From contig NZ_FQUM01000009.1 of assembly GCF_900129025.1 (NCBI RefSeq), positions 62,001 through 126,000 of the forward strand: a DNA stretch of 64,000 bases. The letters run 5' to 3'. A program made the position numbers and the translations under genes. The DNA comes from Mariniphaga anaerophila (GTDB lineage Bacteria; Bacteroidota; Bacteroidia; Bacteroidales; Prolixibacteraceae). Under the pieces are notes generated by a model that worked only from the letters and a program-made list of their open reading frames with translations, had not been told where the DNA came from and did no database searches. Each line of letters begins with the position of its first letter. Position 1 is the stretch's first letter. Shown piece after piece: positions 38,094-58,054 of the stretch.

Positions 38094-39320
38094 TTAAATG
38101 TTTTCGTTGGAGAGGAACCGGTGAGAAATAAAACGAACAGGGTACCACGAAGCAACGAACCCGATGCCTAGTACAATGCCTAGAATGAAAAGGATATCGG
38201 AAAAAACAATTTCTACCGGATAGGCTGAAATGATAAATGAGCCTGCGCCGGGCAGGGTAACAATTTCGAACCGGATTTGAAGCCAGCAGATAAAGACTCC
38301 CAATAAGGAGCCAATTACAGCTCCAAATACTGAAATTAGCCACCCTTCGAATAAAAATATTTTGCGAATAAGTTTGGAATCGGCGCCCATGCTGCGCAAA
38401 ATAAAAAGGTCTTCTTTTTTGTCAATTATCAGCATGGACAAACTCCCCAGCATGTTAAAAGACGCTACAATGAGAATGAAAACCAAGATTAAATAGGAAG
38501 CCCATTTTTCCGATTTCATGGTGCGGAAAATCAGGTCGTGCTGCTGGTATTTGTTTTTCACGTGAAACGAATCTCCCAGTATTTCCTGTATTTGATTCTG
38601 TAGCTTTTTCCCATTTGCTTTCGGATCGATACCCAATTCTACTGCCGAAACCTGGTTTCCGCTTTCAAACAGGCTGGCGGCAAAATGGTAGGGAACAATC
38701 ATGTATTTTGAATCAATTTCTTCCAACACAGAAAAAACGCCTGACGGGAAAATATAGTCGTAATTGAGAGACCGCGCCAGGTTTACAGATGTTTGCTTTC
38801 CTTTTTGGGGAACAAATATGCGAATGGGATCTACAAACGAGAGCCCCAGCCCCAGATTGTATGCAACTCCCTGCCCCACTACCGCGTAATCAATACCTTC
38901 GTCTTCCAGCATAAAAATGCCGTCAACAATTAGCGTATCGATGTTGGTGTAGCTCGAATAATTTGGCGGCACGCCCTTTACAACGGCCGGGTATTGCTGG
39001 TTTCCGTATTTCAGAAGCGCAACTTCCTCTATTACTTCTGCGTAGTGCAACACCCCGGGCAGGTTTTTTATTTTGTCGAACCGGCTGTCGGAAGCAACAA
39101 ACATTTTTCCATGAGTTGGCGTAATTTTCAGGTCGGGGTCAAAATTGCTGAAGAACGTACCGATCAGGCTGTTAAACCCATTAAAAACCGACAACACAAT
39201 TACAAGCGCCATGGTTCCTACAATAATTCCGGAAACCGATATTCCGGAAATAATATTGATGATGTTTTGTTTTTTCTTTGAAAACAAATACCGTAGCGCT
39301 ATAAAGAGTGGTAAGTTCAA
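38094..39320 (-). CDS. FtsX-like ABC transporter permease (LolC/LolE type)
   Basis: A 408-residue permease with an N-terminal helix (IVGTMALVIVLSVFNGF), a MacB-type periplasmic domain (about 50-260) and three C-terminal helices with the FtsX core (FNMLGSLSMLIIDKKEDLFILRSMG). The form matches lipoprotein-releasing LolC/LolE. The ATPase partner (LolD) is not in the window. A parS-like palindrome lies in the coding sequence. rbfA is 43 bp upstream. Confidence 0.9.
   Translation of the reverse strand: MNLPLFIALRYLFSKKKQNIINIISGISVSGIIVGTMALVIVLSVFNGFNSLIGTFFSNFDPDLKITPTHGKMFVASDSRFDKIKNLPGVLHYAEVIEEVALLKYGNQQYPAVVKGVPPNYSSYTNIDTLIVDGIFMLEDEGIDYAVVGQGVAYNLGLGLSFVDPIRIFVPQKGKQTSVNLARSLNYDYIFPSGVFSVLEEIDSKYMIVPYHFAASLFESGNQVSAVELGIDPKANGKKLQNQIQEILGDSFHVKNKYQQHDLIFRTMKSEKWASYLILVFILIVASFNMLGSLSMLIIDKKEDLFILRSMGADSKLIRKIFLFEGWLISVFGAVIGSLLGVFICWLQIRFEIVTLPGAGSFIISAYPVEIVFSDILFILGIVLGIGFVASWYPVRFISHRFLSNENI
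38554..38569. promoter_or_regulatory. parS-like site 3 (inside the permease gene)
   Basis: TTTTTCACGTGAAACG matches the canonical parS palindrome at 14 of 16 positions, with an intact TTTCACGTGAAA core. Location inside a gene is common for parS. Confidence 0.5.
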
Positions 39321-39363
39321 GCTTTTTTGCTATTAAACGGGAATTTAGATATTTTATTGAAAG

Positions 39364-39708
39364 CTATTTTTGAAGCAGCTCATCAATATGTTCAATGTAA
39401 TCGAGGCTGTCGTCAATATAAAATTCAAGTTCCGGAATAATCCGAACGCTTTTACCAATCCGGCGACCCAGCTCACCCCTCACGGCTTTGCTGTTTTGCT
39501 TTATCTCTCCGAGAATTTCTTTGGCAAATTCCGATGGAAATATACTCAGAAAAATACGTGCAATACTCATATCTTTGGTAACCCGCACAATACTAACTGT
39601 TATGAGTTTTCCGTGGTATTTCGACTTATTTAACTGTAGTAAAATATCGGCCATTTCGCGCTGAATCAGCCTTGAAATTTTATTCTGTCTGGTACTGAAT
39701 TGTTCCAT
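39364..39708 (-). CDS. rbfA: Ribosome-binding factor A
   Basis: A 114-residue KH-fold factor for 16S rRNA 5' processing. Start set at the ATG at 39708 (MEQFSTRQNKISRLIQ), as the 27 upstream codons do not look like RbfA. Marks are QREMADIL near the start, ARIFLSIFP, and the C-terminal VRIIPELEFYIDDSLDY. It lies between the STN-domain protein genes and the permease on the minus strand. Confidence 0.94.
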   Translation of the reverse strand: MEQFSTRQNKISRLIQREMADILLQLNKSKYHGKLITVSIVRVTKDMSIARIFLSIFPSEFAKEILGEIKQNSKAVRGELGRRIGKSVRIIPELEFYIDDSLDYIEHIDELLQK

Positions 39709-39785: not shown

Positions 39786-41309
39786 TCACTTTTCTGACGA
39801 AAGGTTTTGGATGGCGTTTCGTAAATCTTCGTCGGGTTTTATAATGTTGTAGTTTTCCCAGAACTGCGAGTCGTAGCTGCCAATCATTTCAACAAAAATG
39901 TCGCGCTTGGAAAACGACTGGTCGCGTTGAAACCGTTTCAGTTTGGTGTTTTGTATGTTGGTTACAAGTAGATCGGAAACACTGTGAAACTCGGAATTGA
40001 TGTTTTCTTTTCGGCTGCGGATTTTAAATTTGATGGAAGCCTGCGCTGTTGCCAGCTGCCATTTTCCCTGGTATTGCTGGTAGTTTACTGTGTATCGGAC
40101 AAAAGACGGTCGGGCTTTTACGCCCTGCGGGGTTCGTTTAATTAATATTGGTGTTGCTTTTTTTAATCCGGTTCTGTCGAATCCAAACTGTGCGCGTACA
40201 ATCGCAAATGTTTCACGGTGAACAAACAGTTCACCAACAAAACCAGGGAAGCTGTGTCCGTTAATCGGCTCAAATTCAATAATATAAACAGGATCGTTGT
40301 TGTACCAAATTACGCGGCTGATTTTGTATTTGTAAAAGTGTTGAAAATCCGGGTCAATAAACGACTCCATGTTTTTTATTATGTCGAGCTGTGTGATGGA
40401 AAACGGTCCTCCCTGAAGTTTAAAATTCAGCCATTTAAATGGTTGAACATCCTGGCTTTGCCTGCCTTTTATTAACCGGACAATGTCATTTCTGATTGAG
40501 TTGTAGTACGGAGCTTTTAGTATTTCGATAACAGCCTCAGAAACATTAATGTAGTTCCCATCCTGTTTAACAGTTTCGCGGTAAAATGCGTTCATCAGCC
40601 TTGAGTCCGAAGAATAGTTTTCCTCGAAATTAGCACGAATATTTTCGAGCAGTTTTTCGGGCGATATCGCTGTTACTTTTATTTCCTTTATCCGGATTGA
40701 AATGGGATCCAGAAAAATTAAGTCTTCATCAAGAAGTTGGTTTGCAGGCATTTGCTTTTGTGCATAACCCATGCTCGAAACAGCAATTGTATCGTCAATA
40801 AACTGAGGATGCAATTTTAAAAGAAAATCGCCATCAGAATTGGTAATGGTGCCAACCGGTTGATTGAAAACCGAAATCGATGCATATTCAATTGGACGGA
40901 GGTGCTTTCTGTCCAGAATTTTACCGGAAAGAAAAAAATATTTAACAGGAACAGTGTCTGGTCTCGCCACAGATGACGCTTCTTTTGGAGCTTTCTTTGT
41001 GATGATAATCTGATTTTCCAGTTCTGTAAACCGGAATATTTCGGGGTTAAAAATTTTTTTCAGAACATGAAAAAGAGATTTGTCAAGGAGCTGTAAACTG
41101 AACGTTTTTTCTGTGTTGATTAAAGAGGCATCGTAAGAAAAATAAACTTTTGCCTGCCAGCTTATCTGGTCTAAAACAGCAGTTAGCGGCAGGTCTTTTA
41201 CCTGAATGGAAATACGGCGTTCCAAAACGGAGCCATCCTGTTGCTGGCCTGTAACAGGAACGCAAAACAACAGGATGGAAACAACTACCCCAATTAGTTT
41301 GATATGCAT
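39786..41309 (-). CDS. STN and carboxypeptidase-regulatory-like domain protein
   Basis: A 507-residue exported protein: signal peptide about 1-21 (ending VTGQ), an STN (secretin/TonB short N-terminal) domain about 34-103 (RRISIQVKDLPLTAVLDQIS), and a CarboxypepD_reg-like beta domain about 126-205 (LSGKILDRKHLRPIEYASIS). A large C-terminal region follows (about 215-505; FYRETVKQDGNYINVSEA and YIIEFEPINGH) that resembles DUF5686-type surface proteins but has no TonB-receptor barrel. Its ATG shares the last A of the protease stop (TAATG), so it is translationally coupled. It is the fourth gene of a sigma-FecR-protease-STN run. Confidence 0.85.
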   Translation of the reverse strand: MHIKLIGVVVSILLFCVPVTGQQQDGSVLERRISIQVKDLPLTAVLDQISWQAKVYFSYDASLINTEKTFSLQLLDKSLFHVLKKIFNPEIFRFTELENQIIITKKAPKEASSVARPDTVPVKYFFLSGKILDRKHLRPIEYASISVFNQPVGTITNSDGDFLLKLHPQFIDDTIAVSSMGYAQKQMPANQLLDEDLIFLDPISIRIKEIKVTAISPEKLLENIRANFEENYSSDSRLMNAFYRETVKQDGNYINVSEAVIEILKAPYYNSIRNDIVRLIKGRQSQDVQPFKWLNFKLQGGPFSITQLDIIKNMESFIDPDFQHFYKYKISRVIWYNNDPVYIIEFEPINGHSFPGFVGELFVHRETFAIVRAQFGFDRTGLKKATPILIKRTPQGVKARPSFVRYTVNYQQYQGKWQLATAQASIKFKIRSRKENINSEFHSVSDLLVTNIQNTKLKRFQRDQSFSKRDIFVEMIGSYDSQFWENYNIIKPDEDLRNAIQNLSSEK

Positions 41310-42871
41310 TAAAACACTTTTTTCAGTTCGAACGAGGTTTTATATTCCTCTCCGTCACGTAATACGGTAATTTTAATTTTTTTGTTTTCTCGGCTTTGCA
41401 ATAAAAGATTGATGTCATTCAGTTCAATCGATTGATGATGGTTGTTGTTTAGAGAAAGAATCTGGTCGTTTACCTGGAGGCCGGCAAAATAGGCGGGAGA
41501 ATTTTCCCTGATGTCTGTTATAGTGAAAATTGGTAATCCCGGCATCGGGTTTATTACCTCCATTCCGCTCATGTTGTAATTGAACTCTTCTTTTACCCGA
41601 TAGGTTGGCCTCAACGTCATTCTGCTGTTTCTGTAATCCATTGTAACAATAAACCTGCGTAGAATTTCTGCGCCAAGGGTTCCGTTTCTGTCGTTGGAAG
41701 AAATCAGCTGGTCTATCAACTCCGAGTTTGGAAAAGCAACAATTGGTTTGGGCAGTACCATTGGGCCTACCCAAAGACCGTCAATCCTTCCTTTGGTGCC
41801 ATACAAATCTCCATTCAGTCCTTTTCCCAAAAAAGTTTCTATGTGGTTTTGAGGAATGTCAATCCGGTCGTCCGATTTTTCGGAAAGCCATAACGCATCG
41901 CTCGCACCGGTGTCTACAAGCAGTTTTACCGGAACTTCCTGAAGATCTTCGGTCACAATACTGGTACGCACAAACGGCTTGTTCCCATCGAGATGCAGCG
42001 GCAAAATAATATCCTTTTTTCTGTCGCGGTATTTGTAGTGTTCAGGGCGGAATAGCGTTATTTTTTCGTTTGAATAATCGATTTTTACAATGTAATCTTT
42101 AAACAGGTTGAATCCGATTAATCCGTGTACCGGCAGACCGAGCATGTGTGAAATCTGGAAGTTTTCGTCGATTATCATTTGTATTTCCTGGTTCCATGCC
42201 GTGAGCCCGTTCAGTTTAATGCTGTTGTTGGCCGAGCGGTATGCTGTTAAATCATAGCCTTCGCCTAATCCCTGAATTTTTACCGGCATCAGGTAATTGA
42301 GATTTAACTTATTAACAAAAGGAAGTTCTGTAATAATCGGAAAACGCACCCCGGTGTCGAGAATGAAATTGAGTGTGTCTGACTCGTTAATGGTTACCGG
42401 TATGATAATTAGGTTACTGGCAGACTTAAATTTTATGGTAATTGATTTTTCTCGCGGATCGTCAAAAAGAAAACCGCGGTTGGCACTTAAAAAATTCTGT
42501 GAATTTTCGTATCCCATGCTTTCTTCAAGCGGAACATAATCTCTGACAACCAGAATGTTGTCTTCTATTTCGAATAGCAGATAAAAGTCTTTCATCAGTT
42601 TATCCAGCACATATTTTATGGGCCGGTTCGAAATATTGAGGTTGACTTTTTTGCCTTCTACAATACTCGAATTGTACGAATAGTCCAGATTCAAATAGTT
42701 ACAGATTTTTTCGATGATATCTGATAACGCTTCGTCTTCAGCATAAATGGAGATATTTTGGTCGAGCGCCTGGTTGTTTGGTTGTTGCGCAAGCCCAGTA
42801 GTAGAAGTTGTTAGCAACACTGCCAGCAACATTGCCACTATTAATCCGATTTTTGTTCCAATAGTTTTCAT
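41309..42871 (-). CDS. STN-domain aspartyl protease with two DTG motifs and a PDZ domain
   Basis: A 520-residue exported protein. Order: signal peptide about 1-29; STN domain about 38-110 (ISIYAEDEALSDIIEKIC); first pepsin/retropepsin-like lobe with D172-T-G (FILDTGVRFPII) closing with VHGLIGFNLFKDYIVKIDY; second lobe with D320-T-G (KLLVDTGASDALWL) closing with LGAEILRRFIVTMDY; C-terminal PDZ about 435-518 (GLPIFTITDIRENSPAYFAGLQ). Two catalytic motifs in one chain predict a single-chain active protease. An STN domain is normally the signalling arm of a TonB receptor, here fused to a protease beside FecR. Likely periplasmic or outer-membrane associated. Confidence 0.87.
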   Translation of the reverse strand: MKTIGTKIGLIVAMLLAVLLTTSTTGLAQQPNNQALDQNISIYAEDEALSDIIEKICNYLNLDYSYNSSIVEGKKVNLNISNRPIKYVLDKLMKDFYLLFEIEDNILVVRDYVPLEESMGYENSQNFLSANRGFLFDDPREKSITIKFKSASNLIIIPVTINESDTLNFILDTGVRFPIITELPFVNKLNLNYLMPVKIQGLGEGYDLTAYRSANNSIKLNGLTAWNQEIQMIIDENFQISHMLGLPVHGLIGFNLFKDYIVKIDYSNEKITLFRPEHYKYRDRKKDIILPLHLDGNKPFVRTSIVTEDLQEVPVKLLVDTGASDALWLSEKSDDRIDIPQNHIETFLGKGLNGDLYGTKGRIDGLWVGPMVLPKPIVAFPNSELIDQLISSNDRNGTLGAEILRRFIVTMDYRNSRMTLRPTYRVKEEFNYNMSGMEVINPMPGLPIFTITDIRENSPAYFAGLQVNDQILSLNNNHHQSIELNDINLLLQSRENKKIKITVLRDGEEYKTSFELKKVF

Positions 42872-42963
42872 CGTGTAATTTTTTAGTTTTTACTGGTTAT
42901 TGAATCACTGATGCGATGCGCCGGCTTACGGTGGCTTTCTATTGTTTTTCATGGCTTTGAGTA

Positions 42964-44007
42964 TTACTTGTTTATTGCTCTGTTTTCTGATAAAATGTAG
43001 GTATTGTTTTCTTTTTCCAATTTCAAATCGAATGTTAACCGGATAACGTTCAGAACGAATTCAACAGGTTTTTTGTCGAACTGGGCCGTGAGGATTAAAT
43101 CGTTTAAATATTCTTCTTTTAATTGAATATCAGTGTGATATGTTTCGTTTAAATAGAAGATTACTTCGCTAAGAGGAGTGTTGTTGAAAAGCAGAATCCG
43201 GGTTTTCCAGGCCAGATAGTTTTGATTGGCATTGGTTGACTTTTCCAACTTTCCGATTGAATTGATAAATGTGCCTTTCTCTCCCGGTTTTAGTGTAATC
43301 TCTTTTAAGTCGGAAATATTTGTGTTTTTATTGCCTGTTACTTTTACTGTTCCGGTTTTAACAACTACTTCAACGGTTTTGCTTTCAGGATACGCATTTA
43401 CATTAAACGACGTTCCTAAAACCTGTACCCGGGCATTTCCGGCATTGATAATGAATGGTGTTTCGGGGTTGTGTGCAACATCAAAAAATGCTTCTCCGGT
43501 AATTGTTACTTCCCGCACATTGTTATTAAATTTTGTGGGAAATTCGAGTTTCGAATTGCTGTTTAATGTAACCAGTGTTCCGTCAGGAAGAACATATTCG
43601 TTAACAACCTGATTTTTGTCCGAAATGATTTCACTGTAATTTACTGAACCCTGGTTTTTTTGTGCGAAGTAGAAGGCGGCGCTGCCTGCAAGTATTGCTA
43701 CAACAATAACTGCAGCGTACCTGTAAAATTTTGAAATGATAGTTCTGCGTGTTAAAGCAGGAGTTATTTTAGGCTGAATACGCTGTTTCGTTTTCTTCCA
43801 GGCCGCATCAGAATTGAATTTGTTGAGTAGAAAATAATCGTCTGTTTTTTCCAACAAAACTTTTATTTCTTCCAGCTCATCTTTGTTTTGTTCCGATTGG
43901 GATGCCCAGTTTTCTACTGCTTCTTTTTCTACGATGTTTGCCTGGTGGCAACAATATTTTTGCAGCAGTTCGTACTTTGGTTTTTCTATGGAATTATTTG
44001 TTTTCAT
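42964..44007 (-). CDS. FecR-family anti-sigma factor
   Basis: Start taken at the ATG at 44007, not the TTG five codons upstream; 347 residues. N-terminal cytoplasmic sigma-binding part (about 1-85), one membrane helix (about 96-116, AAVIVVAILAGSAAFYF), FecR domain (about 130-225, VLPDGTLVTLNSNSKLEF, GEAFFDVAHN) and a C-terminal DUF4974/STN-like domain (about 270-345, TPLSEVIFYLNETYHTDIQL). It would hold its sigma factor until signalled through the periplasm. Gene order sigma-FecR-STN protease suggests the downstream STN proteins are its partners. Confidence 0.92.
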   Translation of the reverse strand: MKTNNSIEKPKYELLQKYCCHQANIVEKEAVENWASQSEQNKDELEEIKVLLEKTDDYFLLNKFNSDAAWKKTKQRIQPKITPALTRRTIISKFYRYAAVIVVAILAGSAAFYFAQKNQGSVNYSEIISDKNQVVNEYVLPDGTLVTLNSNSKLEFPTKFNNNVREVTITGEAFFDVAHNPETPFIINAGNARVQVLGTSFNVNAYPESKTVEVVVKTGTVKVTGNKNTNISDLKEITLKPGEKGTFINSIGKLEKSTNANQNYLAWKTRILLFNNTPLSEVIFYLNETYHTDIQLKEEYLNDLILTAQFDKKPVEFVLNVIRLTFDLKLEKENNTYILSENRAINK

Positions 44008-44063
44008 CTGTAATGAAGACAAATGATCTGAGTTTTACCCTGAATGTAGTTTGAAAAAATTAA

Positions 44064-44612
44064 TCAGAAAATTAAAAAATGGCGCAATTTTTTACGTAAA
44101 GTGCTAATTGCGAGTCCTATTTGGGTTTCTACTGTTTTTACTGAAATGTTCAATTTTAGGGCAATTTCATTATATTTCAATCCTTCTTCCCTGCTCATTC
44201 TGAAAATCTTTTGTCGTTTTTCCGGCAGCTCAGAAATGCTTTCCTCAATTTTTTGAAACAGTTCTTGTTGGGTGTCAATGTTTTCTCCGGAATAGAATTT
44301 CTCAGTTTGGGCCAACACTTTTTTAGAATGTTCGTTTACGATTTGGTTGTGTTTGATGTAATTCAGGCAATGGTTTTTTACAGCTCTGAACAGATAGTTT
44401 TGTAGAGACGATTCAATTTTAGTTTTCTTCCGGTTTTCCCAAAGGAGAACAAACAGCTCCTGAACTATTTCTTCTGCTGCAGACGGGTTTTTTAATACTT
44501 TAGTGGTATACAGGCATAAATGGGGGTAATATTGTCTAAAAAGCGCTTCAAACGCTTTCTTATCGCCTCCCCTGATTTTTGCAAGAAGAATATTTTCCCT
44601 TTGCTTGTCCAT
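44064..44612 (-). CDS. ECF RNA polymerase sigma factor (FecI-like)
   Basis: A 182-residue sigma-70 of the Bacteroidota ECF type. Region 2 (FEALFRQYYPHLCLYTTKVL, AAEEIVQELFVLLWENR) and region 4 (LPEKRQKIFRMSREEGLKYNEIALKL, SVKTVETQIGLAISTLRKKL) are complete. It is first in a minus-strand run with FecR, protease and STN genes. The 210 bp between its start and the tRNA promoter hold nothing I can name. Confidence 0.93.
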   Translation of the reverse strand: MDKQRENILLAKIRGGDKKAFEALFRQYYPHLCLYTTKVLKNPSAAEEIVQELFVLLWENRKKTKIESSLQNYLFRAVKNHCLNYIKHNQIVNEHSKKVLAQTEKFYSGENIDTQQELFQKIEESISELPEKRQKIFRMSREEGLKYNEIALKLNISVKTVETQIGLAISTLRKKLRHFLIF

Positions 44613-44822
44613 TAATTACGCCTGTTAAAACTGCCTGACTAATTTAGTAAAAACGATGTTATTTCCTGAAAACAAAAGTATTGAATGAAATAAACATGTT
44701 TTTTTATCCAGGTATTGCAATCAGTAATGCTGAAATTTTCGCTAAAATCATGAATCTCTTCCGGTTTTTTGAACGCTTAGAAATCAAAAAAACTAAAACA
44801 GATGAAATTTAGGAGTAAGATT

Positions 44823-45037: not shown

Positions 45038-45080
45038 GTGCCCCTGTTATTGAAAATATTTTAACATTAATGTGTGTGAA

Positions 45081-46442
45081 ATGAAAATTACAGTTTATAT
45101 ATTTCTAGCCTTAGTTATTCTCATTATAAATTTTTGTTCAGCATCAAATGATGTAGATTCGATACCTGATATTGAAGAGGGGCTTGCAATGGAGACTTAT
45201 CCAAATCCGGATATTGAAAATAATCCAATTGTCGATTACTCAAAGTGGAAAATCAAAAATGGAAAATTTTATATGAATGGTAAATGGAAATTTCTAAAGA
45301 TTGCCAAACCATTGAGAAATTTTGCGAATCAAGGTGAGGTTGATAAACTAATTGCAGACCTTGACACGTTAAGAAGTAAGTTTTATAATACAATAGAAAT
45401 AAATTGTTATTGGCATCATTTTGATACTAATGGTGATGGTGAAATTGATAAATCATTAGCTCCCCTTAATAATCTCATTAATGCTATATATCAGAGAGGA
45501 ATGTATCCTTGCCTGTCTGTTGAAACTTATTCTGTAGGAGGAGGTCAGATACCAAGTGGGTTTTGGGATATTTATCCTGATGCATGCGCTATTGACGACA
45601 AGGGCCAAGAGGTAAGAGATACGGAGTATGGTTTTAATAACGCAGTGGTTTCTATTTTTCATAAAGGATATCGCGAAACAACTCGTAAATTTATTAAAAA
45701 TCTTGCGAGTGGTATTGACACAAAAAAGATTCTATATTTTGAAACAACTGTTGAGCCCCAATATATGGGAGATGTTAGGTTGTGCTATAGCGAGGCTGCA
45801 AAGACTGCCTATGTAAATTGGAGGAAGGCAAATAATATTACAGACCAAGCTTCTGAGATGCCTACAGGTTTTCCTGTTTCATCAAAATTTGTTAATAATT
45901 CTATCTGGAATAAATTTCGAGCTCAGTTTTTGGCGAAATGGGTTAATGGGGATGCTCAGGCTTATCGGGAAATTGCAGGTGCATCAGCATATGTTGCAGT
46001 AGATTACTTAGATGCAAGTGAAGAAGTACAGAAGTTTAGGGATGGTGATCCTATTGAATTTTTAACCCACCTTACGTCGGTTAATATTATCCAGGTTAAC
46101 TGGCACTGGCATCTTGGGAATAATGCCCCTAACCAAAAGGCATATGATAGAGTTTGGCAAGTTAAAAATAATGAAGGGAAAGACTGGGCAATTACTGAGC
46201 ACATGACATTAAATGGCAGTGATTTCTTGTCACATTCAGACAGTGGTATTGAAAAAATTCTTGAAAATGCGCTAAAGCAAGGAACACGTTTTGGTTTTGA
46301 GTTTACCAATGTGATAAATAATAGTAATAGCACTTTTGGCCTTTATAACAATGACTGGGAACCAAAAAATGTAATTCGAATTGTTGACCAGTATTGGGGA
46401 TGGTGGCTTTACAGAGCAAATACTATTGAAAAAGAGAACTAA
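45081..46442 (+). CDS. Putative glycoside-hydrolase-like lipoprotein (TIM-barrel type, family not assigned)
   Basis: The ATG at 45081 is chosen over a GTG three codons earlier; 453 residues. Signal peptide with lipobox-like INFC (about residue 19). The rest reads like a clan GH-A barrel: PDACAIDDKGQEVRDT and ETTVEPQYMGD (E221/E225, possible acid/base) recall GH42-type enzymes, and a WAITEHMTLNG segment could hold the nucleophile. NGDGEIDKS looks like a calcium-type D-rich loop. I do not assign a family or substrate. The DNA looks richer in A/T than neighbouring genes. It lies first inside the direct repeats and is followed directly by a transposase remnant. Confidence 0.65.
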   Translation: MKITVYIFLALVILIINFCSASNDVDSIPDIEEGLAMETYPNPDIENNPIVDYSKWKIKNGKFYMNGKWKFLKIAKPLRNFANQGEVDKLIADLDTLRSKFYNTIEINCYWHHFDTNGDGEIDKSLAPLNNLINAIYQRGMYPCLSVETYSVGGGQIPSGFWDIYPDACAIDDKGQEVRDTEYGFNNAVVSIFHKGYRETTRKFIKNLASGIDTKKILYFETTVEPQYMGDVRLCYSEAAKTAYVNWRKANNITDQASEMPTGFPVSSKFVNNSIWNKFRAQFLAKWVNGDAQAYREIAGASAYVAVDYLDASEEVQKFRDGDPIEFLTHLTSVNIIQVNWHWHLGNNAPNQKAYDRVWQVKNNEGKDWAITEHMTLNGSDFLSHSDSGIEKILENALKQGTRFGFEFTNVINNSNSTFGLYNNDWEPKNVIRIVDQYWGWWLYRANTIEKEN

Positions 46443-46449
46443 TTTTTAA

Positions 46450-46689
46450 TACGATAAGCAAATCCGCAGGCTCATTTACACAACCAATTCTGTGGAAGGA
46501 TTTCACCGTCAGGTACGAAAAGTAACCAAAACAAAAGGTGCTTTTTCCAACGATATGGCTTTGCTGAAGCTGATTTATCTGACAACCGAACATATCTCAA
46601 AAAAATGGACACAGCCGCTCCAGAACTGGGGCCTTACTGCACAGCAGTTGAAAATAAAGTTTGGAGACCGAATGAAACTTGACCTCTGA
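46450..46689 (+). pseudogene. IS256-family (mutator type) transposase, C-terminal remnant
   Basis: The frame encodes about 79 residues after a TAA at 46447. It includes IRRLIYTTNSVEGFHRQVRK, TKTKGAFSNDMALLKLIYL and ISKKWTQPLQNWG, which match the last part of IS256-type DDE transposases (the end of the catalytic core). The catalytic N-terminal four-fifths are missing; 8 bp upstream is the stop of the hydrolase-like gene. It is therefore a relic marking past insertion and deletion. Confidence 0.87.
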
Positions 46690-46729
46690 TTTTAATCTCT
46701 AAAAGCAAAGTAAAAACAGGATTTAAAAC

Positions 46730-46777
46730 CTGTCAAGGGTATATAAATGGCTTCGCATACTCAGCCGCCCCTGACAG
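46730..46777. repeat. Inverted repeat near the end of the IS remnant
   Basis: CTGTCAAGGG (46730-46739) faces CCCCTGACAG (46768-46777), pairing 9 of 10. It lies 40 bp after the transposase stop, so it may belong to the right end of the element. It could also act as a hairpin. Confidence 0.45.
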
Positions 46778-47240
46778 AACTCAAATCCCGTTCAAAAAAG
46801 CTTTTACGATTAAAAATCCAGAAAATGAATTAATTTTGATTGATAGAAAATTACCAGACAGAGTTTAGATTACACTCCCTTAACAATAATTTTAAAATGT
46901 AAAAAGTATCTTAGGTTTATAGAGAAATTTGTTCAACAGGTTTAGACGTTAAACAATATCCTCTCACAATAGTTTTGAGTATTAGACAAACATGTTTCGT
47001 TTTGTGTTCAATTACAATTGCCTTTGAAGCCCAGGAAATGATTATTTTGAAATTCAAATATAGCGGTCTCGATAGCCAATACGATTCTAATTTGGAATTA
47101 TTAAAAATGACATACCCAGACGATTCCATAGACTGCTTAATTGGTCTTTTTACTATTTTTCATAAACGGTAAATCAAGTCCGTTAAACTAACTCTTAATG
47201 AAAAAAACATTCAAACGTAGCTAACGATAAATCAATAATT
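46778..47240. other. Gap without a gene
   Basis: About 460 bp of AT-rich DNA. A 65-codon ORF at 46975-47172 shows no family likeness, signal or coupling and is not called. No promoter could be defined for the downstream hydrolase gene. Confidence 0.4.
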
Positions 47241-49682
47241 ATGAAGACTTTGAAACTTTTAATCTTGTTCTGCAGTATCGCACTGTACTCCCAGTCACAA
47301 ACGGTTTCTGTTGGAGAAAACGAAGCCATTTTAGAAAATCAAAAAATTAAAATCGAATTTAACCTTGAGGCTGGAACTTACTCCGGAGTCTGTAAAGCTG
47401 ACGGTACATTTATGTTTTCTGATGCAACATTTTTGCTCGACCGTGGTCAGAAAATGTGGAACTTGCCACCACTGCTTATTAAAGCAGAAGAAATAAGTAC
47501 TGCCATTGGCAAAAAACTTCGGGTATGGTACATTCCAGAAAAGGGTTACGATCCGATTCGCTTCCTAGATATCTGCCTGTTCGACAACAGCCCGAAAATT
47601 ATTTTTAGATGGGGAGTAAAGAATGATTTCGACTATGAGGTACGAGTACGCCAAGCTGATGTTTTATACGAAGGCAGGCTTTTCGACGGACAGCACCCCA
47701 CCAATGCCAAAGTATTGAGGGGCGGTGCAGGCGCCGAACCAAATTTCGTGGAAGAAACATGGAAAATAGACGCACTGAACAGCACAATGCTTACTTACAA
47801 CGATTCATTGTCGGAAAGTAAAAGAAGAACAATTGTGGCAGGAGGTTATAAATATGCCGAGTTCTACCGGGAGATAGAAATTTATGCGGGTCGCAAAACA
47901 GGCACTTCCGATGGTGAATTCAGCTACCAGGGCAAGCAACCGTACATCACTTTTTCAATTACCGATCCACAGGGAAAGCGCATTGCCCCACATACAACAT
48001 GGGTTTCAGAAGACAGTTATTATCTTGATTTTATTACTGAAGATCCTTTTATTTCACTGGAGCAATACGGAAAGGAACTGGCCAAAGTAAACCATGCCAA
48101 TCCAAACAGATATAACTTTCCGACACTTTGTGGCTGGATGGTTTCTACCAAAAGCCTCGGCGAAGGAAAGCCAATCAACAATTCACCGGCTTTGGTCGAC
48201 CAAATGGAGTTGGCACGGGAAAGAGGCTTGAACAAATACACTTCGTTAGCTGTGCGCCTCGAACCCGATTTTTATTGCTATGGAGATTTTGGAAATACGC
48301 AGCAAGGTTGGTGGGACGATGAGCATTGGGCAAAATTCGGTTCGCTGAAAGCGCCTTACGAAACCTTTTCAAAATTCAGCTCGGGTGTTCAGGAAAAAGG
48401 AGGACGGGTTTTTACCTATTTTCAGAGTTCTATGCCAAGCAACGATTTTGCTGTTGCACATCCCGATTGGATGTTGAATAAAGATATATCCCTGTTACAC
48501 ACCGATCATTACCACCACCGCCCTTTAGTGCGATACGACTATTCAAATCACGATTTTCAGAAATACATGCTTGCAATGTGGTCGCGACTGGGCAACGATG
48601 GAGTAAAAGGCATTAAATTCGATTACCCGGAAACAGCCTGGGCATCGGGGGGTGGCTTCGACGATAAATCATTCACAACCACTTCTGCTTACCGCGAAGT
48701 TTTTAAACTCTGCCGCGAGGGCATGGGCAAAGAAGCATTTATTCATGAAAGAAACCTGGGAGGAAAGACTCATGAAAATGCGCCGCGGTTAGATTGCACT
48801 GTTGGCATTGTTGATTTACAGCGTGTTTGGGGCGATGCCAGCCACTTCGAGCCGGAGATGGCTTCCCGAATGGGACTTAGATGGTACAAACAGGGAGTGG
48901 CATATCGCTATTACCCCGATGGGAAAAGTTTCTACCTAAAGGGTGTTGCACTCAGCGCCAAAGACCGCAGGACTTTCCTTACACTGGTAGGGTTACTGTC
49001 AGGCCGCATTGAACTGGGAACCAGCATTGGGTCGATGACCGACAGTATGTTCTACGACCTTACCCGCATGTTCCCTACCCTCCCGAATGGCAAATCTTTT
49101 CGCCCGGTGGATTGTTTTCTCGGGAACGAACACCCTTCTGTATATGTATATGATGTTGTTCCAGGGTGGAAACAGTTGATCATGGTTAACAACGACACGA
49201 AGAATGCTCAGGATATTTCGGCACCTTTTTCGGGCGATCAGGTAGCCACCGGATCAATGGGATGCAATGCAGAGAGAAAATATGTTGTATTTGATTTTTG
49301 GAACAGCAAAAGCTTGGGAGTCTATTCGGGGAACGACACATTTGTCCGCCATCTCGATAAGGGTGAAGCTCTTATTTATTCAGTAAAAGAATTAAAAGCA
49401 TATCCTCAGATTATTGGCACAAACCGTCATGTAATGTGCGGGATGTTTGAAGTTGAGAATGAGGAATGGAACAAGAATCGACGGGAGCTATCGTTTGTAA
49501 CAAAGCTGATCGGCGGCGAGCCAATGAAGATATTTGTGCATGTGCCGGATGGATTAAAAGTGAAAGAAGTAAAATCGGAAGCAACTGCTACAATTGATTT
49601 AAATGGAAATGATATGACAATCACCCTAACTGCCTCAGACAAAAACGCCAACCTTCCGATCAACATATATTTTTCTAACTAA
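47241..49682 (+). CDS. Secreted glycoside hydrolase, alpha-galactosidase-like (GH-D-type barrel)
   Basis: An 813-residue protein with signal peptide about 1-19 (ending YSQSQ). It has an N-terminal beta domain (about 20-270), then a TIM barrel (about 290-620) and a C-terminal beta region. In the barrel, VKGIKFDYPETAW (D461) looks like the KxD nucleophile strand of clan GH-D (GH27/31/36). HERNLGGKTHENAPRLDC and VDLQRVWGDAS lie where the acid/base strand would be. Exact family and substrate are not assigned. It is followed by a GH29 fucosidase after 17 bp, so the two probably act on one glycan. Confidence 0.65.
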   Translation: MKTLKLLILFCSIALYSQSQTVSVGENEAILENQKIKIEFNLEAGTYSGVCKADGTFMFSDATFLLDRGQKMWNLPPLLIKAEEISTAIGKKLRVWYIPEKGYDPIRFLDICLFDNSPKIIFRWGVKNDFDYEVRVRQADVLYEGRLFDGQHPTNAKVLRGGAGAEPNFVEETWKIDALNSTMLTYNDSLSESKRRTIVAGGYKYAEFYREIEIYAGRKTGTSDGEFSYQGKQPYITFSITDPQGKRIAPHTTWVSEDSYYLDFITEDPFISLEQYGKELAKVNHANPNRYNFPTLCGWMVSTKSLGEGKPINNSPALVDQMELARERGLNKYTSLAVRLEPDFYCYGDFGNTQQGWWDDEHWAKFGSLKAPYETFSKFSSGVQEKGGRVFTYFQSSMPSNDFAVAHPDWMLNKDISLLHTDHYHHRPLVRYDYSNHDFQKYMLAMWSRLGNDGVKGIKFDYPETAWASGGGFDDKSFTTTSAYREVFKLCREGMGKEAFIHERNLGGKTHENAPRLDCTVGIVDLQRVWGDASHFEPEMASRMGLRWYKQGVAYRYYPDGKSFYLKGVALSAKDRRTFLTLVGLLSGRIELGTSIGSMTDSMFYDLTRMFPTLPNGKSFRPVDCFLGNEHPSVYVYDVVPGWKQLIMVNNDTKNAQDISAPFSGDQVATGSMGCNAERKYVVFDFWNSKSLGVYSGNDTFVRHLDKGEALIYSVKELKAYPQIIGTNRHVMCGMFEVENEEWNKNRRELSFVTKLIGGEPMKIFVHVPDGLKVKEVKSEATATIDLNGNDMTITLTASDKNANLPINIYFSN

Positions 49683-49699
49683 ACTGAACTTAAATCCTT

Positions 49700-51301
49700 A
49701 TGAAAAAAAATCAGATTCTCCTCCTAATTCAATATGCAGGACTTATTACATTGGCTGTACTATTTATTACCTGCAAAGAACAAAGAAAACCGCAAATCAA
49801 ATACGAGCCAACGCTCGAATCATTAGGACAGCACCAGTGCCCGGAATGGTTTAGAGATGCTAAATTTGGCATATTCATGCACTGGGGGGTAATGAGTGTT
49901 GTAGAAGGTAATAGCGGATGGTATGGCCGCCATATGTACATGCAGGTTAATAACGAATGGGGGCAAGACTATCAAAAACATTTGGAGCGCTATGAACATC
50001 CTTCAGAATCGGGATACAAAGACCTTATCCCTCTTTGGAAAGCAAGGAAGTGGAATCCTGACAAAATAGTGAAACTGTATAAGGAAATTGGAGCAAGATA
50101 TATCGTTCCGGTGGCAGTTCACCACGACAACTTCGACTTATTCAATTCTTCCTACCAACCATGGAATTCTGTTAATATGGGGCCGAAACGTGATGTTATC
50201 GGAGAATGGGCTGAGGCAGCAAAAAAATACGGACTTCGCTTCGGGGTTTCGTCTCATAACGACCGCAGCTGGACCTGGTTAGAACCCGCATTCGGAAGCG
50301 ATGTAAGCGGCCCAATGAAAGGAGTAAAATACGATGGATGGGATACAAAAGAAGATGGCAAAGGACTTTGGTGGGAAGGATACGACCCTGCTGACCTATA
50401 TACAACGCCACACGATTCGTCGGCCACATTTACGAAAGAATACTGCGAAAAATGGTACAACCGCACCATTGAACTGATAGACAAGTATCACCCTGACTTG
50501 ATTTATTTCGATGGGCCACTCCCAATTATGGGAACCACCGAAGCTTGCGCCAAATCGAGGTCATGGACAAAAGAATACGGGTTACGAATGGCAGCTCACT
50601 ATTTCAATGAAAACCCTACCTGGAACAACGGAAAAAATGATGCTGTAATTGCAATTAAAGAATGGAAAGGTTTCCCGATACCCAACAAAAAAGCATTTAC
50701 CGCCGACTTTGAGAAAAGCGGGAATACGGATACTCAGAAGTTCCCCTGGCAAACCGATACGTCCTTATCTGGCACATGGTTTTGGAACGGGAACCCTCAT
50801 AACGAAATCAGCGACACTGTCATTATCCACAACCTGTGTGATGTGGTTAGCAAAAACGGAAATTACCTGCTGAATGTAGGCCTGACTGCTGATGGAGAAA
50901 TTCCGGAGTATGAAATGACAAGCCTCGAAAATATCGGAGCATGGCTAAAAGTAAACGGAGAAGCAATTTTTGACACCCGCCCTTGGGAGAAATTTGGAGA
51001 AGGCCCGTCAATAGTGCCGGAAGGAGAATTTCAGCAAAACAAAAAGCCATTTACCAGTGAAGATATTCGGTTTACAAAAAAACAGGATGCTTTGTATGCT
51101 ATTTTTATGGACTGGCCAAAGAATAATGTTGTTAACATAAAATCGTTATCTAAAGCATTATACGGCGAAACTCCGATTATAAGTATTGAAGTTTTGGGTA
51201 GCACGCAAAAAATCAAATGGGAACAAAACGATGATGAGCTAAAAGTTGAATTACCAGAGCAGAAGCCTTGTAGTTATGCCTATGTCTTAAAGATTCAATA
51301 A
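49700..51301 (+). CDS. Alpha-L-fucosidase, GH29
   Basis: A 533-residue lipoprotein (lipobox FITC, C25). GH29 marks: CPEWFRDAKFGIFMHWG (residues about 47-63), AVHHDNFDLFNSSYQPWN, and HPDLIYFDGPLP with the likely nucleophile D271. A C-terminal beta domain follows. It releases terminal alpha-L-fucose from glycans in the periplasm or at the cell surface. It sits 17 bp after the GH-D-like gene, with a broken GH95 fucosidase downstream. Confidence 0.93.
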   Translation: MKKNQILLLIQYAGLITLAVLFITCKEQRKPQIKYEPTLESLGQHQCPEWFRDAKFGIFMHWGVMSVVEGNSGWYGRHMYMQVNNEWGQDYQKHLERYEHPSESGYKDLIPLWKARKWNPDKIVKLYKEIGARYIVPVAVHHDNFDLFNSSYQPWNSVNMGPKRDVIGEWAEAAKKYGLRFGVSSHNDRSWTWLEPAFGSDVSGPMKGVKYDGWDTKEDGKGLWWEGYDPADLYTTPHDSSATFTKEYCEKWYNRTIELIDKYHPDLIYFDGPLPIMGTTEACAKSRSWTKEYGLRMAAHYFNENPTWNNGKNDAVIAIKEWKGFPIPNKKAFTADFEKSGNTDTQKFPWQTDTSLSGTWFWNGNPHNEISDTVIIHNLCDVVSKNGNYLLNVGLTADGEIPEYEMTSLENIGAWLKVNGEAIFDTRPWEKFGEGPSIVPEGEFQQNKKPFTSEDIRFTKKQDALYAIFMDWPKNNVVNIKSLSKALYGETPIISIEVLGSTQKIKWEQNDDELKVELPEQKPCSYAYVLKIQ

Positions 51302-52002: not shown

Positions 52003-52686
52003 CTACATTTCAATTTTAACAATCTTTGTAAAATTATATCGTTTTTGTGCATTATCTGTTCTTGCCCCAATTCTTACATAGTAAATAGAATTGGACTCGA
52101 AGTTACTAATTGACTCATTGAATGTGGTTTGCAGAATCTCTTCATCGGAGATATTTTGCAAATCAACCATTGGGCTGATTTCTGAGCTGAAAACGTTGTT
52201 TCCAACACTTGGATTTTTTGATATAAACACTCTTGTATCGATAATCTTATCTCCCGCCTGTTGCCGTTTTAGGCGATAAGAAACGTTAAGCGAATTCCCC
52301 GACTTTGTAATATCTACATTCTCAAATTCAAGATAAGGTATAACTGTAAAATCGATGTTTTTTGTCCCTTTAATTTCCGTTTCAACAGCATCTACCGGGA
52401 AAAATGCTCCTTCTACGGGTTGTACTTTGTATGTCGCTGCAAATAGTCTGGTATTTCTGAAGGTGCCATCAGCTTTTCCCCAGAAATACTGAGGTTCTGG
52501 ATTATCTGACCAACTTGTTTCAAGCAATTTAATCCTATATGCGTTGGGTTGCTCTGATACAAAGTTTTCATCCGACCCTTTTACTTTTAGTGTACCTGTA
52601 AGTGTGTGGTTCGGCTCATCGTAGTTGTCCACTTGACAGGCAGTAAGCAGAATTAGTAAGCCTAATATCAATTTATGAATCTTCAT
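52003..52686 (-). CDS. DUF3823 lipoprotein (SusE-position surface glycan-binding protein)
   Basis: A 227-residue lipoprotein (lipobox LTAC, near residue 16). It has the DUF3823 pattern: an N-terminal carboxypeptidase-like beta domain (TGTLKVKGSDENF, ADGTFRNTRLFAATYKVQP) and a C-terminal Ig-like domain. Such proteins occupy the SusE/F place after susC-susD and probably bind glycan at the surface. It lies 18 bp after susD. Confidence 0.9.
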   Translation of the reverse strand: MKIHKLILGLLILLTACQVDNYDEPNHTLTGTLKVKGSDENFVSEQPNAYRIKLLETSWSDNPEPQYFWGKADGTFRNTRLFAATYKVQPVEGAFFPVDAVETEIKGTKNIDFTVIPYLEFENVDITKSGNSLNVSYRLKRQQAGDKIIDTRVFISKNPSVGNNVFSSEISPMVDLQNISDEEILQTTFNESISNFESNSIYYVRIGARTDNAQKRYNFTKIVKIEM

Positions 52687-52704
52687 TGCTAATGTTTTTT
52701 ATAA

Positions 52705-54474
52705 TTAATAACCTGGATTCTGTATTAAGTTTGGATTTTTGCTAATTTCTTCTCCTGGTATTTTTACGTAGTAGTTCTTTGGTTGAAATGTAAGATTTCC
52801 TCCGATTTTTTCCTTGGTGAAGATATACTTATTTTCGTCCTCAACATAATATGGGCAAAGAGACGTGAATTGCTTATTATTGATCTCAGAATCAGCAATT
52901 CTCCACCGCCGAATATCCCAGAAATTTTGGCTCTCTAGCGCTAGTTCCATTCTTCGCTCACGTCTTATATTATCTACTGTTAACTCGTCCATCGTGAGTA
53001 ATTTCGCTCCGGCCCGATCGCGAATTTTGTTAATTGCAATGAGTGCTTCATTTTTCTTGTCGTCAATGTTAAATGCAGCTTCTGCTTCATTTAGAAGAAC
53101 TTCTCCATAACGGAACAATATAAAGTTGTTTTCACTATTTTCAAGTAATACTTCTGCTTTTGATAAACTTGGATTTTGGTATTTTCTATTAAAGAAGCCG
53201 GTGGCAGTCATTTCATTATGCCCAATTCCGCTGGCACCAATAATTGGTCTTCCGTTATGTAATATATTGTGATCAGAAGCAACAAGTTTTTCTCCATTTG
53301 GATAACTGGTGAAAATACCTTTCTGAACATCAATGATTTCTCCTTTGAATTTGTCCCCAGGAAGCATTACAGTTGCCCTAAGCCTGGGTTGAACATTTGC
53401 AAATAAATCTGAGATTTGGTCAAATCTTAACGGATTCCCATTGTCATCATTTACTTTAAGTACTCCACTGTTTCCATTAATGTCGTCATACTTTTCCACA
53501 AGTTCAAGAGTCGGGCACCATCTGCTGGAGTACCCTTGAGGTCCCCGCATTTGATAAGGAATCGTTATTGCCTGAAAACTATGGGCATTGTCAGGATATT
53601 TATAATATGAAATAAAAATATTTTCCGGACTGTTTTCATCCAAGAACATATTCAAAAAGTTTTCATATTTATCAGAATATTTGTTATATAAAGAGAATTT
53701 CTCTTTAAGTGCAACAGATGCATCATAACTTGAATTGTAAAAATATTCAGCTTCGTTATTGGGTATTCCAATCAATCCATTGAGTTGTACGGTTCCATAT
53801 TTTGCGATTGAACCAGCGTAAAGCATCGCTCTTGATTTTAATGCAAGCGCTACATTTTTATTAGCTCTGCCATTTGCAACAGTTCCTTCATCTAGTAGGC
53901 TTATTGCGTCAACAAGATCTTTCTCAATAAACTTATAAACCTCTGACTCTGTATTGCGGGGTACCTGAAGCTCTTCAATACTTTGCTCCGGATAGTTTTG
54001 AACTTCGGTGATTATTGGTACTCCTCCATAGCGTTTTACTATAGAAAAGTATATAAATGCCCTAAGGAACAAAGCTTCTCCTTTCAACTTATTTGCAACT
54101 TCATTTGAATAATTTTCAGCATAATTAGGGAGTGTTGCCAAAAAATAATTAACGTCCCTTATGCTTGAATATGCCTGTGCCCAATAGGTGAAATCTTCAT
54201 CACGTAGGTAATCATAGAGCAAGTCACTAGGGCATGCCGTTATTTCTCCGGAAAAAGTATTAGTACCATGGTTACAATACCATGATTGTGGGTCATCGCG
54301 GGTAAAGGTAAAATCTTCATAAGGGAGTTCTTTATAGATGCCTGCCATGTATGCATCTATTCCAGATTCGTTTGCAAATGTAGCGTCATCCTGTACAATA
54401 TTTATTGGCGGTACATCAAGGGTGTTGCATCCAGCAATAAAGAACATTATTATTATTAGTGCTTTATATTTCAT
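52705..54474 (-). CDS. SusD-like nutrient-binding lipoprotein (RagB/SusD)
   Basis: A 589-residue lipoprotein (lipobox IAGC, C16). SusD marks: N-terminal helical TPR region (YAQAYSSIRDVNYFLATLP, KGEALFLRAFIYFSIVKRYGGVP) and C-terminal RFGEVLLNEAEA-like LFRYGEVLLNEAEAAFNI and RRERRMELALESQNFWDIRRW. It forms the lid on the SusC transporter and binds the incoming oligosaccharide. It follows susC by 12 bp. Confidence 0.96.
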   Translation of the reverse strand: MKYKALIIIMFFIAGCNTLDVPPINIVQDDATFANESGIDAYMAGIYKELPYEDFTFTRDDPQSWYCNHGTNTFSGEITACPSDLLYDYLRDEDFTYWAQAYSSIRDVNYFLATLPNYAENYSNEVANKLKGEALFLRAFIYFSIVKRYGGVPIITEVQNYPEQSIEELQVPRNTESEVYKFIEKDLVDAISLLDEGTVANGRANKNVALALKSRAMLYAGSIAKYGTVQLNGLIGIPNNEAEYFYNSSYDASVALKEKFSLYNKYSDKYENFLNMFLDENSPENIFISYYKYPDNAHSFQAITIPYQMRGPQGYSSRWCPTLELVEKYDDINGNSGVLKVNDDNGNPLRFDQISDLFANVQPRLRATVMLPGDKFKGEIIDVQKGIFTSYPNGEKLVASDHNILHNGRPIIGASGIGHNEMTATGFFNRKYQNPSLSKAEVLLENSENNFILFRYGEVLLNEAEAAFNIDDKKNEALIAINKIRDRAGAKLLTMDELTVDNIRRERRMELALESQNFWDIRRWRIADSEINNKQFTSLCPYYVEDENKYIFTKEKIGGNLTFQPKNYYVKIPGEEISKNPNLIQNPGY

Positions 54475-54486
54475 GATAATAGTGAT

Positions 54487-57864: not shown

Positions 57865-57946
57865 AAATTTGTTTTTAGTTAAATGATTTGCTTGCCAAAG
57901 AGTTATTCATTAAACGATTGCTTGAGGTATAAACACAAGCATTTTT

Positions 57947-57987
57947 ACAGACTGAAAATATTGTCCGTATTTTCGGTCTGTTTTTTT
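57947..57987 (+). terminator. Strong terminator facing plus, antisense to the susC leader
   Basis: A 14-bp stem (ACAGACTGAAAATA/TATTTTCGGTCTGT, one G-T pair, loop TTGTCCG) followed by seven Ts on the plus strand. All flanking genes are on the minus strand, where the hairpin is followed by As rather than Ts. It lies between fecR and susC. Confidence 0.8.
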
Positions 57988-58054
57988 AGGATGAGTTGTT
58001 TTTTTTCATAAAGTTTGATTTTTTCAGTTATTAAATAATTGCCTTTGTTAGTTT

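What the first reader, a model, noticed from the sequence alone, without database searches (positions are those of the whole stretch)
39786..44612. ECF sigma / FecR operon feeding two STN-domain proteins, one an aspartyl protease, with no TonB receptor
Seen: genes for an ECF sigma and a FecR anti-sigma, then a secreted protein with STN + two DTG motifs (D172, D320) + PDZ, then a TAATG-coupled STN + carboxypeptidase-regulatory-like protein. Known: in Fec/Sus-type signalling the STN domain of a TonB-dependent transporter contacts FecR. Inferred: here the STN domains sit on a protease and a non-barrel partner, so the periplasmic signal may be a proteolytic or surface event rather than nutrient import, with the protease possibly acting on FecR itself. 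The FecR C-terminal DUF4974 domain resembles STN, giving three related modules in one operon.
Basis: partly seen in the sequence, partly recalled or inferred. Interest (0 to 1): 0.75.

Follow-up and report, generated by a model that had tools for sequence, protein, structure and literature searches.

The report
Receptor-free FecR operon with STN protease
A family of Bacteroidota carries a conserved gene switch in which the usual outer-membrane import receptor is replaced by two exported proteins, one of them a protease, that carry the receptor's docking domain; this may offer a way into the open question of what first cuts such switches.

Summary
The reading is right: ECF sigma, FecR, STN+two-lobe aspartic protease+PDZ (PROT) and an STN+carboxypeptidase-like protein (CPR) form an operon (39786-44612, minus strand) without a TonB receptor. 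In 80 named loci, mostly Prolixibacteraceae, 73 have the full order, 4 are cut by contig ends, 3 lack sigma, FecR and CPR.

New: (1) CPR's C-terminal domain models as LolA-like, the fold of RseB/MucB, which guard anti-sigma factors; support is moderate. (2) The core is sigma-FecR-CPR: it occurs without PROT in two genera of the family and in two other families. (3) PROT is an old stand-alone protease: 47 of 47 orthologs examined from other families lack the STN and have no ECF-sigma or FecR in the fetched stretch. PROT's STN profile is closest to CPR's. (4) PROT's STN stays conserved where FecR is absent (3 genomes) and where a catalytic Asp is lost (3 of 77 proteins, operon intact).

So "barrel-free signalling" is supported; "protease cleaves FecR" is possible but not the obligatory core step. 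Best model: a TonB-receptor-free cell-surface signalling module with an STN-LolA-like transducer, to which an STN-bearing protease was added. It is a new variant of a known kind; every interaction is inferred.

The parts
44064..44612 (-). SIG: ECF sigma factor, 182 aa (TIGR02985)
42964..44022 (-). FECR: FecR-type anti-sigma, 352 aa as called from TTG; likely true start ATG at 44007; hydrophobic stretch near residues 99-122 (by eye)
42994..43194 (-). FECR C-terminal FecR_C (DUF4974, STN-like) domain, residues 277-343
41309..42871 (-). PROT: signal peptide (by eye) + STN + two-lobe aspartic protease + PDZ, 520 aa
42518..42766 (-). STN domain of PROT, residues 36-118
42356..42358 (-). codon of catalytic D172 (first DTG)
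41912..41914 (-). codon of catalytic D320 (second DTG)
41333..41527 (-). PDZ domain of PROT, residues 449-513
39786..41309 (-). CPR: signal peptide (by eye) + STN + CarboxypepD_reg + LolA-like domain, 507 aa
40986..41222 (-). STN domain of CPR, residues 30-108
40743..40931 (-). CarboxypepD_reg (NTE-like) domain of CPR, residues 127-189
39930..40667 (-). LolA-like domain of CPR, about residues 215-460 (structure-based inference)

Best explanation
This is an ECF-sigma/FecR cell-surface signalling module in which the TonB-dependent transducer is replaced by an exported, barrel-less one. CPR is the transducer. Its STN docks on FecR's C-terminal STN-like domain, as the STN of PupB or FoxA docks on PupR or FoxR (inferred), and its LolA-like domain senses an envelope signal such as a mis-sorted lipid, lipoprotein or LPS intermediate (inferred from fold). 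When the signal displaces CPR, FecR becomes cleavable and the sigma is released (inferred). PROT is an old stand-alone PDZ aspartic protease that entered this operon and gained an STN, probably related to CPR's (shown: gene order, domain gain, profile similarity). PROT most likely works at the same STN hub, as a binding competitor or scaffold and, where its Asp pair is intact, also as a quality-control or FecR-trimming protease (inferred). Proteolysis by PROT is an added step, not the obligatory core.
For: SIG-FECR-PROT-CPR in 73 of 80 named loci, 4 more cut by contig ends (one search scores 70; L086, L113 and L129 are read). FECR next to STN-bearing CPR without PROT in 16 of 16 loci fetched from genera g8 and g15 (of 18 candidates; SIG visible in 15), and SIG-FECR-CPR in 3 loci of two other families: CPR is the constant FecR partner. 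STN-less protease orthologs: 47 of 47 (of 67 non-family genomes with a match) have no STN and no ECF sigma or FecR anywhere in the fetched stretch; 3 of these stretches are under 1.5 kb on one side. STN profiles: PROT-CPR 98.7% (E 4e-16), PROT-TBDT 97.0%, PROT-FECR 90.0%. CPR C-terminal fold: Foldseek ranks LolA-superfamily 3bk5 and 3buu first and second, MucB:MucA 6in9 third, LolA3 9tp6 fifth, RseB 2p4b ninth; profile match to LolA_like 34% (E 4e-4, 57 columns) against 0.1-3.2% in four controls. The STN outlives FecR and catalysis. Precedents: FoxA's STN protects FoxR from proteolysis (PMC11637429); PupB STN:PupR complex (PMC7186176); MucB protects MucA from the PDZ protease AlgW and lipids release it (PMC7400510).
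Against: No interaction was tested. Rate covariation gave no CPR-STN/FECR-STN or PROT-STN/FECR-STN signal (-0.16, -0.07). The LolA-like assignment is weak in numbers: target-normalised TM 0.38-0.43 and rmsd about 10-12 A for the LolA hits, and only 0.26 with rmsd 17-20 A for MucB and RseB (full-length query); 1 of 40 members touches a LolA Pfam model (E 0.016). CPR-STN resembles FECR-STN weakly (38%) and TBDT-STN almost as much as PROT-STN (98.5%). The STN-sigma link is not strict for CPR: three STN-less CPR copies (L301-L303) sit directly beside SIG-FECR, and one STN-bearing CPR (L299) has no SIG/FECR neighbour. The regulon is unknown; the element upstream of SIG looks housekeeping-like.
Confidence: 0.5

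Rival explanations
1. PROT is the dedicated site-1 protease of this FecR: its STN brings it to FecR's STN-like end, its PDZ reads a C-terminus, and its Asp pair makes the first cut, with CPR as the guard. This is DegS/AlgW plus RseB/MucB logic built from FecIR parts.
For: PROT sits directly between FECR and CPR, median ORF gaps 19 and 0 nt; PDZ plus protease architecture; the 47 orthologs examined outside this operon have no STN; both catalytic Asp kept in 74 of 77. The site-1 protease of FoxR and of FecR is stated to be unknown (PMC11637429 introduction, PMC8144685 passages).
Against: FecR-CPR operons without PROT exist; a catalytic Asp is lost in 3 of 77 with intact operon, in two lineages; PROT-STN is conserved in 3 genomes without this FecR; no rate covariation.
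Confidence: 0.25
2. PROT is only an output of the operon: an envelope proteostasis protease whose STN binds a conserved partner other than FecR (for example another STN protein or its own protease lobes). The sigma simply controls its level.
For: PROT evolves about 2-5 times more slowly than FECR and CPR (tree lengths 6.9-11.0 for its three domains against 18.7-37.8 for their six; 67 loci). PROT-STN and the protease domain share rate changes (0.33). STN retained without SIG/FECR/CPR, with STN/protease branch ratios 0.34, 0.37 and 0.71 against a median of 0.78 in 56 others. STN-less ortholog beside a clpB-like gene in 5 of 47 loci.
Against: No STN was seen on the 47 orthologs examined outside this operon; the STN resembles that of the FecR partner CPR most; a pure protease output does not explain Asp-less copies kept in the operon.
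Confidence: 0.2
3. Conventional Fec/Sus-type signalling: FECR is contacted by a TonB receptor encoded elsewhere, and CPR and PROT are target genes only.
For: The genome has 28 STN-matching frames of 1085 aa or more, receptor-sized; CPR-STN also resembles TBDT-STN (98.5%).
Against: No TonB receptor found on the operon strand near the operon; the receptor set in this window has its own sigma-FecR (52705-59712); the STN of both operon proteins would be unexplained.
Confidence: 0.05

Closest known systems
FecI-FecR-FecA / FoxI-FoxR-FoxA cell-surface signalling
   Same: ECF sigma, FecR-type anti-sigma with STN-like C-terminus, STN-bearing partner in the same operon
   Different: no TonB-dependent receptor; the STNs sit on two exported non-barrel proteins, one a protease
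RpoE-RseA-RseB-DegS / AlgU-MucA-MucB-AlgW envelope stress response
   Same: parts list: ECF sigma, membrane anti-sigma, LolA-like periplasmic protein, PDZ protease
   Different: anti-sigma is FecR, not RseA/MucA; the protease is aspartic, not HtrA-type; docking would be by STN; the RseB-like role is inferred from a moderately supported fold
ECF sigma-FecR-SusC/SusD loci of Bacteroidota
   Same: same sigma class and FecR family; an example lies in this window at 52705-59712
   Different: no SusC or SusD in the operon
Bacterial clan AA proteases (retropepsin-like RloA; PMC12239564, passages)
   Same: DTG motifs; gag-asp_proteas and Asp_protease_2 profiles
   Different: two lobes in one chain with pepsin-like overall fold, plus STN and PDZ

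Membership tests
FecIR-type cell-surface signalling | ECF sigma gene next to FecR with FecR and FecR_C domains | tested here: met
FecIR-type cell-surface signalling | STN-bearing TonB-dependent receptor in the operon | tested here: not met
   none in the operon; 7 receptors among 34 large frames scanned within 8 kb, all opposite strand, no STN
FecIR-type cell-surface signalling | physical contact of partner STN with FecR C-terminus | not testable with these tools
   no complex prediction; rate covariation gave no signal
RseA/RseB/DegS (MucA/MucB/AlgW) stress response | LolA-fold protein in the sigma/anti-sigma operon | tested here: inconclusive
   Foldseek top ranks LolA superfamily, MucB, RseB but low TM; profile 34% against controls 0.1-3.2%; LolA Pfam model in 1 of 40, E 0.016
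RseA/RseB/DegS (MucA/MucB/AlgW) stress response | RseA/MucA-type anti-sigma | tested here: not met
   anti-sigma is FecR
RseA/RseB/DegS (MucA/MucB/AlgW) stress response | PDZ serine protease (HtrA type) as site-1 protease | tested here: not met
   the PDZ protease here is aspartic
Clan AA aspartic protease | two D[TS]G motifs in a two-lobe fold | tested here: met
   for the window protein; an Asp is lost in 3 of 77 of its family
Clan AA aspartic protease | pepstatin-type proteolytic activity | not tested
   needs purified protein

The most novel reading that the evidence does not exclude
A bacterial lineage rebuilt the RseA-RseB-DegS circuit out of FecIR parts. STN domains act as a shared plug: FecR's STN-like end is guarded by an STN-tagged RseB-like sensor and attacked by an STN-tagged aspartic site-1 protease, and in some lineages the protease has become a catalytically dead STN competitor (pseudoprotease).
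Probability: 0.2. Interest if true: 0.85.

Novelty: new variant of a known kind. Interest (0 to 1): 0.6.

Why it matters
Papers seen here state that the site-1 protease of FoxR and of FecR is unknown, and that a transducer STN may protect its anti-sigma from proteolysis rather than activate it. This operon encodes a possible guard and a possible cutter, both STN-tagged and neither a barrel, so the question can be tested without a membrane receptor or TonB. It also shows the STN moving as a portable docking tag between unrelated proteins under one sigma/anti-sigma pair, with natural knock-outs (no protease; protease without FecR; Asp-less protease) to compare.

Tried and rejected
Rejected: chance juxtaposition (synteny). 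Rejected: a TonB receptor normally in the operon. Tried without result: rate covariation between STN domains and FECR; the largest positive value between genes was 0.21 (PROT-PDZ with the CPR LolA-like domain). Search for paired four-letter words upstream of SIG: only a TAnnTTAG-like element read by eye in close relatives. Word pairs exceeded the shuffles (26 against 9), but the shuffles were mononucleotide and the sequences are related, so I draw nothing from it.

Weak points. In one search the TonB-receptor STN set was wrong for 4 of 8 (wrong strand); it was redone with 9 sequences and only one search is used. Profile sets differ in depth, so the ranking of STN similarities is soft. The PROT model has low confidence over its STN, so I claim no STN structure for PROT. 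In one search the three FecR-less ratios were computed without the small pseudocount used for the 56 comparators; the tree is one FastTree run read without support values, and terminal branches include time before the losses. L097/L099 dN/dS (0.10 STN, 0.14 protease, 0.05 PDZ) is one pair, with two to three close comparator pairs near or below 0.035. G174 changes also occur in L102 (DTD) and L135 (DTS). Family membership of the 80 named loci is taken from record titles, some of which carry other labels. Literature: no paper; no paper; no paper on an STN-protease in a FecR operon was seen in these listings (open-licence PMC only).

Selections and dropped rows. A1 uses 24 of the 25 relatives listed (L059 left out) plus the window protein; A2 has 22 rows; A4 43 of 77 PROT proteins; A5 40 of 72 CPR proteins. 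Of 67 non-family genomes with a protease match, 47 were examined. Four weaker paralogs fetched (L064-L067, 21-58 bits to PROT) were left out of the 47; two of them, L064 and L066, have a sigma-FecR pair a few genes away. Of 18 FECR-CPR candidates in genera g8 and g15, 16 were fetched. STN-less CPR copies viewed: 11, of which 8 have no SIG/FECR neighbour (L250-L253, L300, L304-L306) and 3 do (L301-L303).
Full report
OBSERVATION. The window lies in a 5.05 Mb genome whose nearest named relatives are Mariniphaga; most named relatives are titled Prolixibacteraceae or genera I recall as belonging there. The four genes are as described. SIG matches TIGR02985. FECR has FecR and FecR_C. PROT has two Asp_protease_2 stretches and a PDZ. 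CPR has a sub-threshold STN and a CarbopepD_reg_2. The PROT STN is missed by Pfam in the window protein, but 42 of 43 members of A4 match FecR_C and 31 of 43 match STN at E<=0.1. rbfA (39364-39708) and a MacB/FtsX-type permease, LolC/E-like by my reading (38094-39320), follow on the same strand.

CONSERVATION. Of 40 genomes searched with PROT (own included), 30 match at E<=0.001, some through STN or PDZ alone. Full-length STN-bearing PROT is in the window genome and in 18 of the 23 other same-family genomes there. In 140 family genomes PROT is found in 107 at E<=1e-50. Among 80 named loci, 70 score as SIG-FECR-PROT-CPR by script; L086, L113 and L129 have the order but failed my gap limits; L083, L101, L132 and L145 are cut by contig ends; L071, L079 and L102 lack SIG, FECR and CPR. 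A further gene, PLUG, follows CPR in 34 of 80 (36 without, 10 not seen). The two PLUG proteins scanned have an MG2 domain and a carboxypeptidase-regulatory-like domain, the latter over cut-off in one; the tail looks to me like a TonB plug without barrel (by eye, no Pfam hit).

NO RECEPTOR. Within 8 kb of PROT in the 80 loci there are 35 frames of at least 780 aa besides PLUG. Pfam on 34 (all but one in L131) gives 7 TonB receptors (L103, L112, L116, L123, L127, L130, L133), all on the opposite strand and without an STN at E<=1e-5. Shorter receptors would be seen only through the SusC/SusD profile, whose one further hit is a weak SusD-like one in L069.

CORE AND ADD-ON. Genera g8 and g15 have no PROT at E<=1e-50 (13 genomes without a match are not listed there) but have FECR next to an STN-bearing CPR: 16 of 16 loci fetched (of 18 candidates), SIG visible in 15, PLUG in 9, PROT in 0. 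In 295 genomes of the class, CPR-like proteins at E<=1e-45 are in 11, own genome included. Three of these, in families f60 and f105, have STN-less CPR - SIG - FECR - STN-CPR (L301-L303), and one (L299) has an STN-CPR with no SIG/FECR. So sigma-FecR-CPR is wider than PROT's presence in it. STN-less CPR copies: 8 of 11 viewed have no SIG/FECR beside them, and the 3 in L301-L303 do.

PROT'S ORIGIN. In 295 genomes of the order, 71 have the protease at E<=1e-12, 67 of them outside the family. I examined 47 of the 67. None has an STN match and none has an ECF sigma or FecR in the stretch fetched; three weak sigma hits of 20-22 bits on 288-aa proteins are not ECF-sized, and three stretches have under 1.5 kb on one side. 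Four weaker paralogs were left out; two of these have a sigma-FecR pair a few genes away. STN profiles: PROT-CPR 98.7%, PROT-TBDT 97.0%, PROT-FECR 90.0%, CPR-TBDT 98.5%, CPR-FECR 38%, FECR-TBDT 14%. Gain of the STN thus goes with entry into the operon, and copying from CPR is the simplest source (inference).

NATURAL KNOCK-OUTS. L071, L079 and L102 fall in three places in the PROT tree, and whole-genome searches found no close match to this FECR or CPR in them: best FECR hits 93-120 bits, and best CPR hits of 34, 176 and 23 bits, the 176 one without STN. Their STN is not relaxed: STN/protease terminal branch ratios 0.34, 0.37 and 0.71, against a median of 0.78 and a 5-95% range of 0.25-1.69 for 56 others. 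Conversely, L087 (DNS/NTG) and L097 and L099 (NTG/DMG) have lost a catalytic Asp while SIG, FECR and CPR are present, with the STN almost unchanged. L097 and L099 are separate assemblies of close relatives, so this is two lineages. L097 against L099, both with the changed motifs, shows dN/dS of 0.10, 0.14 and 0.05 for STN, protease and PDZ, low but above active comparators. The STN therefore seems to matter apart from both FecR and catalysis. All three, and the three FecR-less ones, are MAGs.

STRUCTURES. CPR's model has mean pLDDT 84.7. Foldseek's first PDB hits are 3bk5 and 3buu (LolA superfamily), 6in9 (MucB with MucA), 4z48 (DUF1329) and 9tp6 (LolA3), with RseB ninth; TM-scores are low (0.38-0.43 of the target for the LolA hits, 0.26 for MucB and RseB), partly because the whole protein was the query. 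The CarboxypepD domain matches the SusC NTE (9hfj, TMt 0.88). A profile comparison with 26 LolA_like proteins of the order gave 34%, E 4e-4, over 57 columns; four controls gave 0.1-3.2%. PROT's protease part matches pepsin/renin-type aspartic proteases over about 350-380 alignment columns; its STN is modelled with low confidence.

MECHANISM. FoxA's STN binds FoxR without signal and protects it from proteolysis, and the site-1 protease is unknown (PMC11637429: abstract, introduction, first part of discussion). PupB STN binds PupR, whose C-terminus is an STN (PMC7186176, passages). FecR's site-1 protease is unknown (PMC8144685, passages). MucB protects MucA from the PDZ protease AlgW, and lipids antagonise MucA-MucB binding (PMC7400510: abstract, introduction, one results section). 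STN domains of SusC proteins in sigma-controlled loci are described as signalling parts (PMC7782687, passages). From these and the anatomy I infer a guard (CPR), a switch (FECR) and an added STN-docked protease (PROT). Shown here: gene order, domain gain, moderate fold similarity, natural losses. Inferred: every interaction, the signal, and the cut. Against: no rate covariation between the STN domains and FECR, and the PROT-less and Asp-less versions, which argue that PROT is not the obligatory cutter. A Leptospira FecR-like system is also discussed in print as lacking an STN-extended receptor (PMC12155086, passages), so receptor-less FecR is not itself unheard of.

VERDICT. It is a new variant of cell-surface signalling with envelope-stress features.

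Noticed in passing
window 52003-59712: A separate classical set: ECF sigma, FecR, SusC with STN, SusD and a DUF3823 protein, the ordinary arrangement and a useful control.
   Followed up: partly
L087, L097, L099 (PROT genes): A catalytic Asp of the STN-protease is replaced by Asn while the operon is present; L135 and L102 have other changes in the first motif.
   Followed up: partly
L301, L302, L303: In two other families an STN-less CPR copy lies directly before SIG-FECR-CPR(STN), hinting that the STN form arose by local duplication and STN gain.
   Followed up: partly
L093:13106-15730, L103:13140-15695 and 32 other loci: A gene after CPR encodes MG2 + a carboxypeptidase-regulatory-like domain (two scanned) and, by eye, a plug-like tail without barrel: parts of a TonB receptor spread over non-barrel proteins.
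   Followed up: partly
window 38094-39708 and many relatives: rbfA and a LolC/E-like permease follow the operon in one clade, and lie inverted beside it in L129; a possible link of the LolA-like CPR to lipoprotein sorting.
   Followed up: no
L057, L060, L194, L195, L200: The STN-less protease ortholog lies next to a clpB-like gene (named from the L057 sequence, recalled; one has a 61-aa frame between) in 5 of 47 loci, hinting at a proteostasis role.
   Followed up: partly
window 44613-44660: Upstream of SIG a TAnnTTAG-like element, resembling the housekeeping Bacteroidota -7 box (recalled), recurs in close relatives by eye; no sign of sigma autoregulation.
   Followed up: partly
window 45072-51301: Three genes next to the operon on the plus strand look like a glycan-degradation set (the last resembles an alpha-L-fucosidase, recalled); not scanned.
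   Followed up: no
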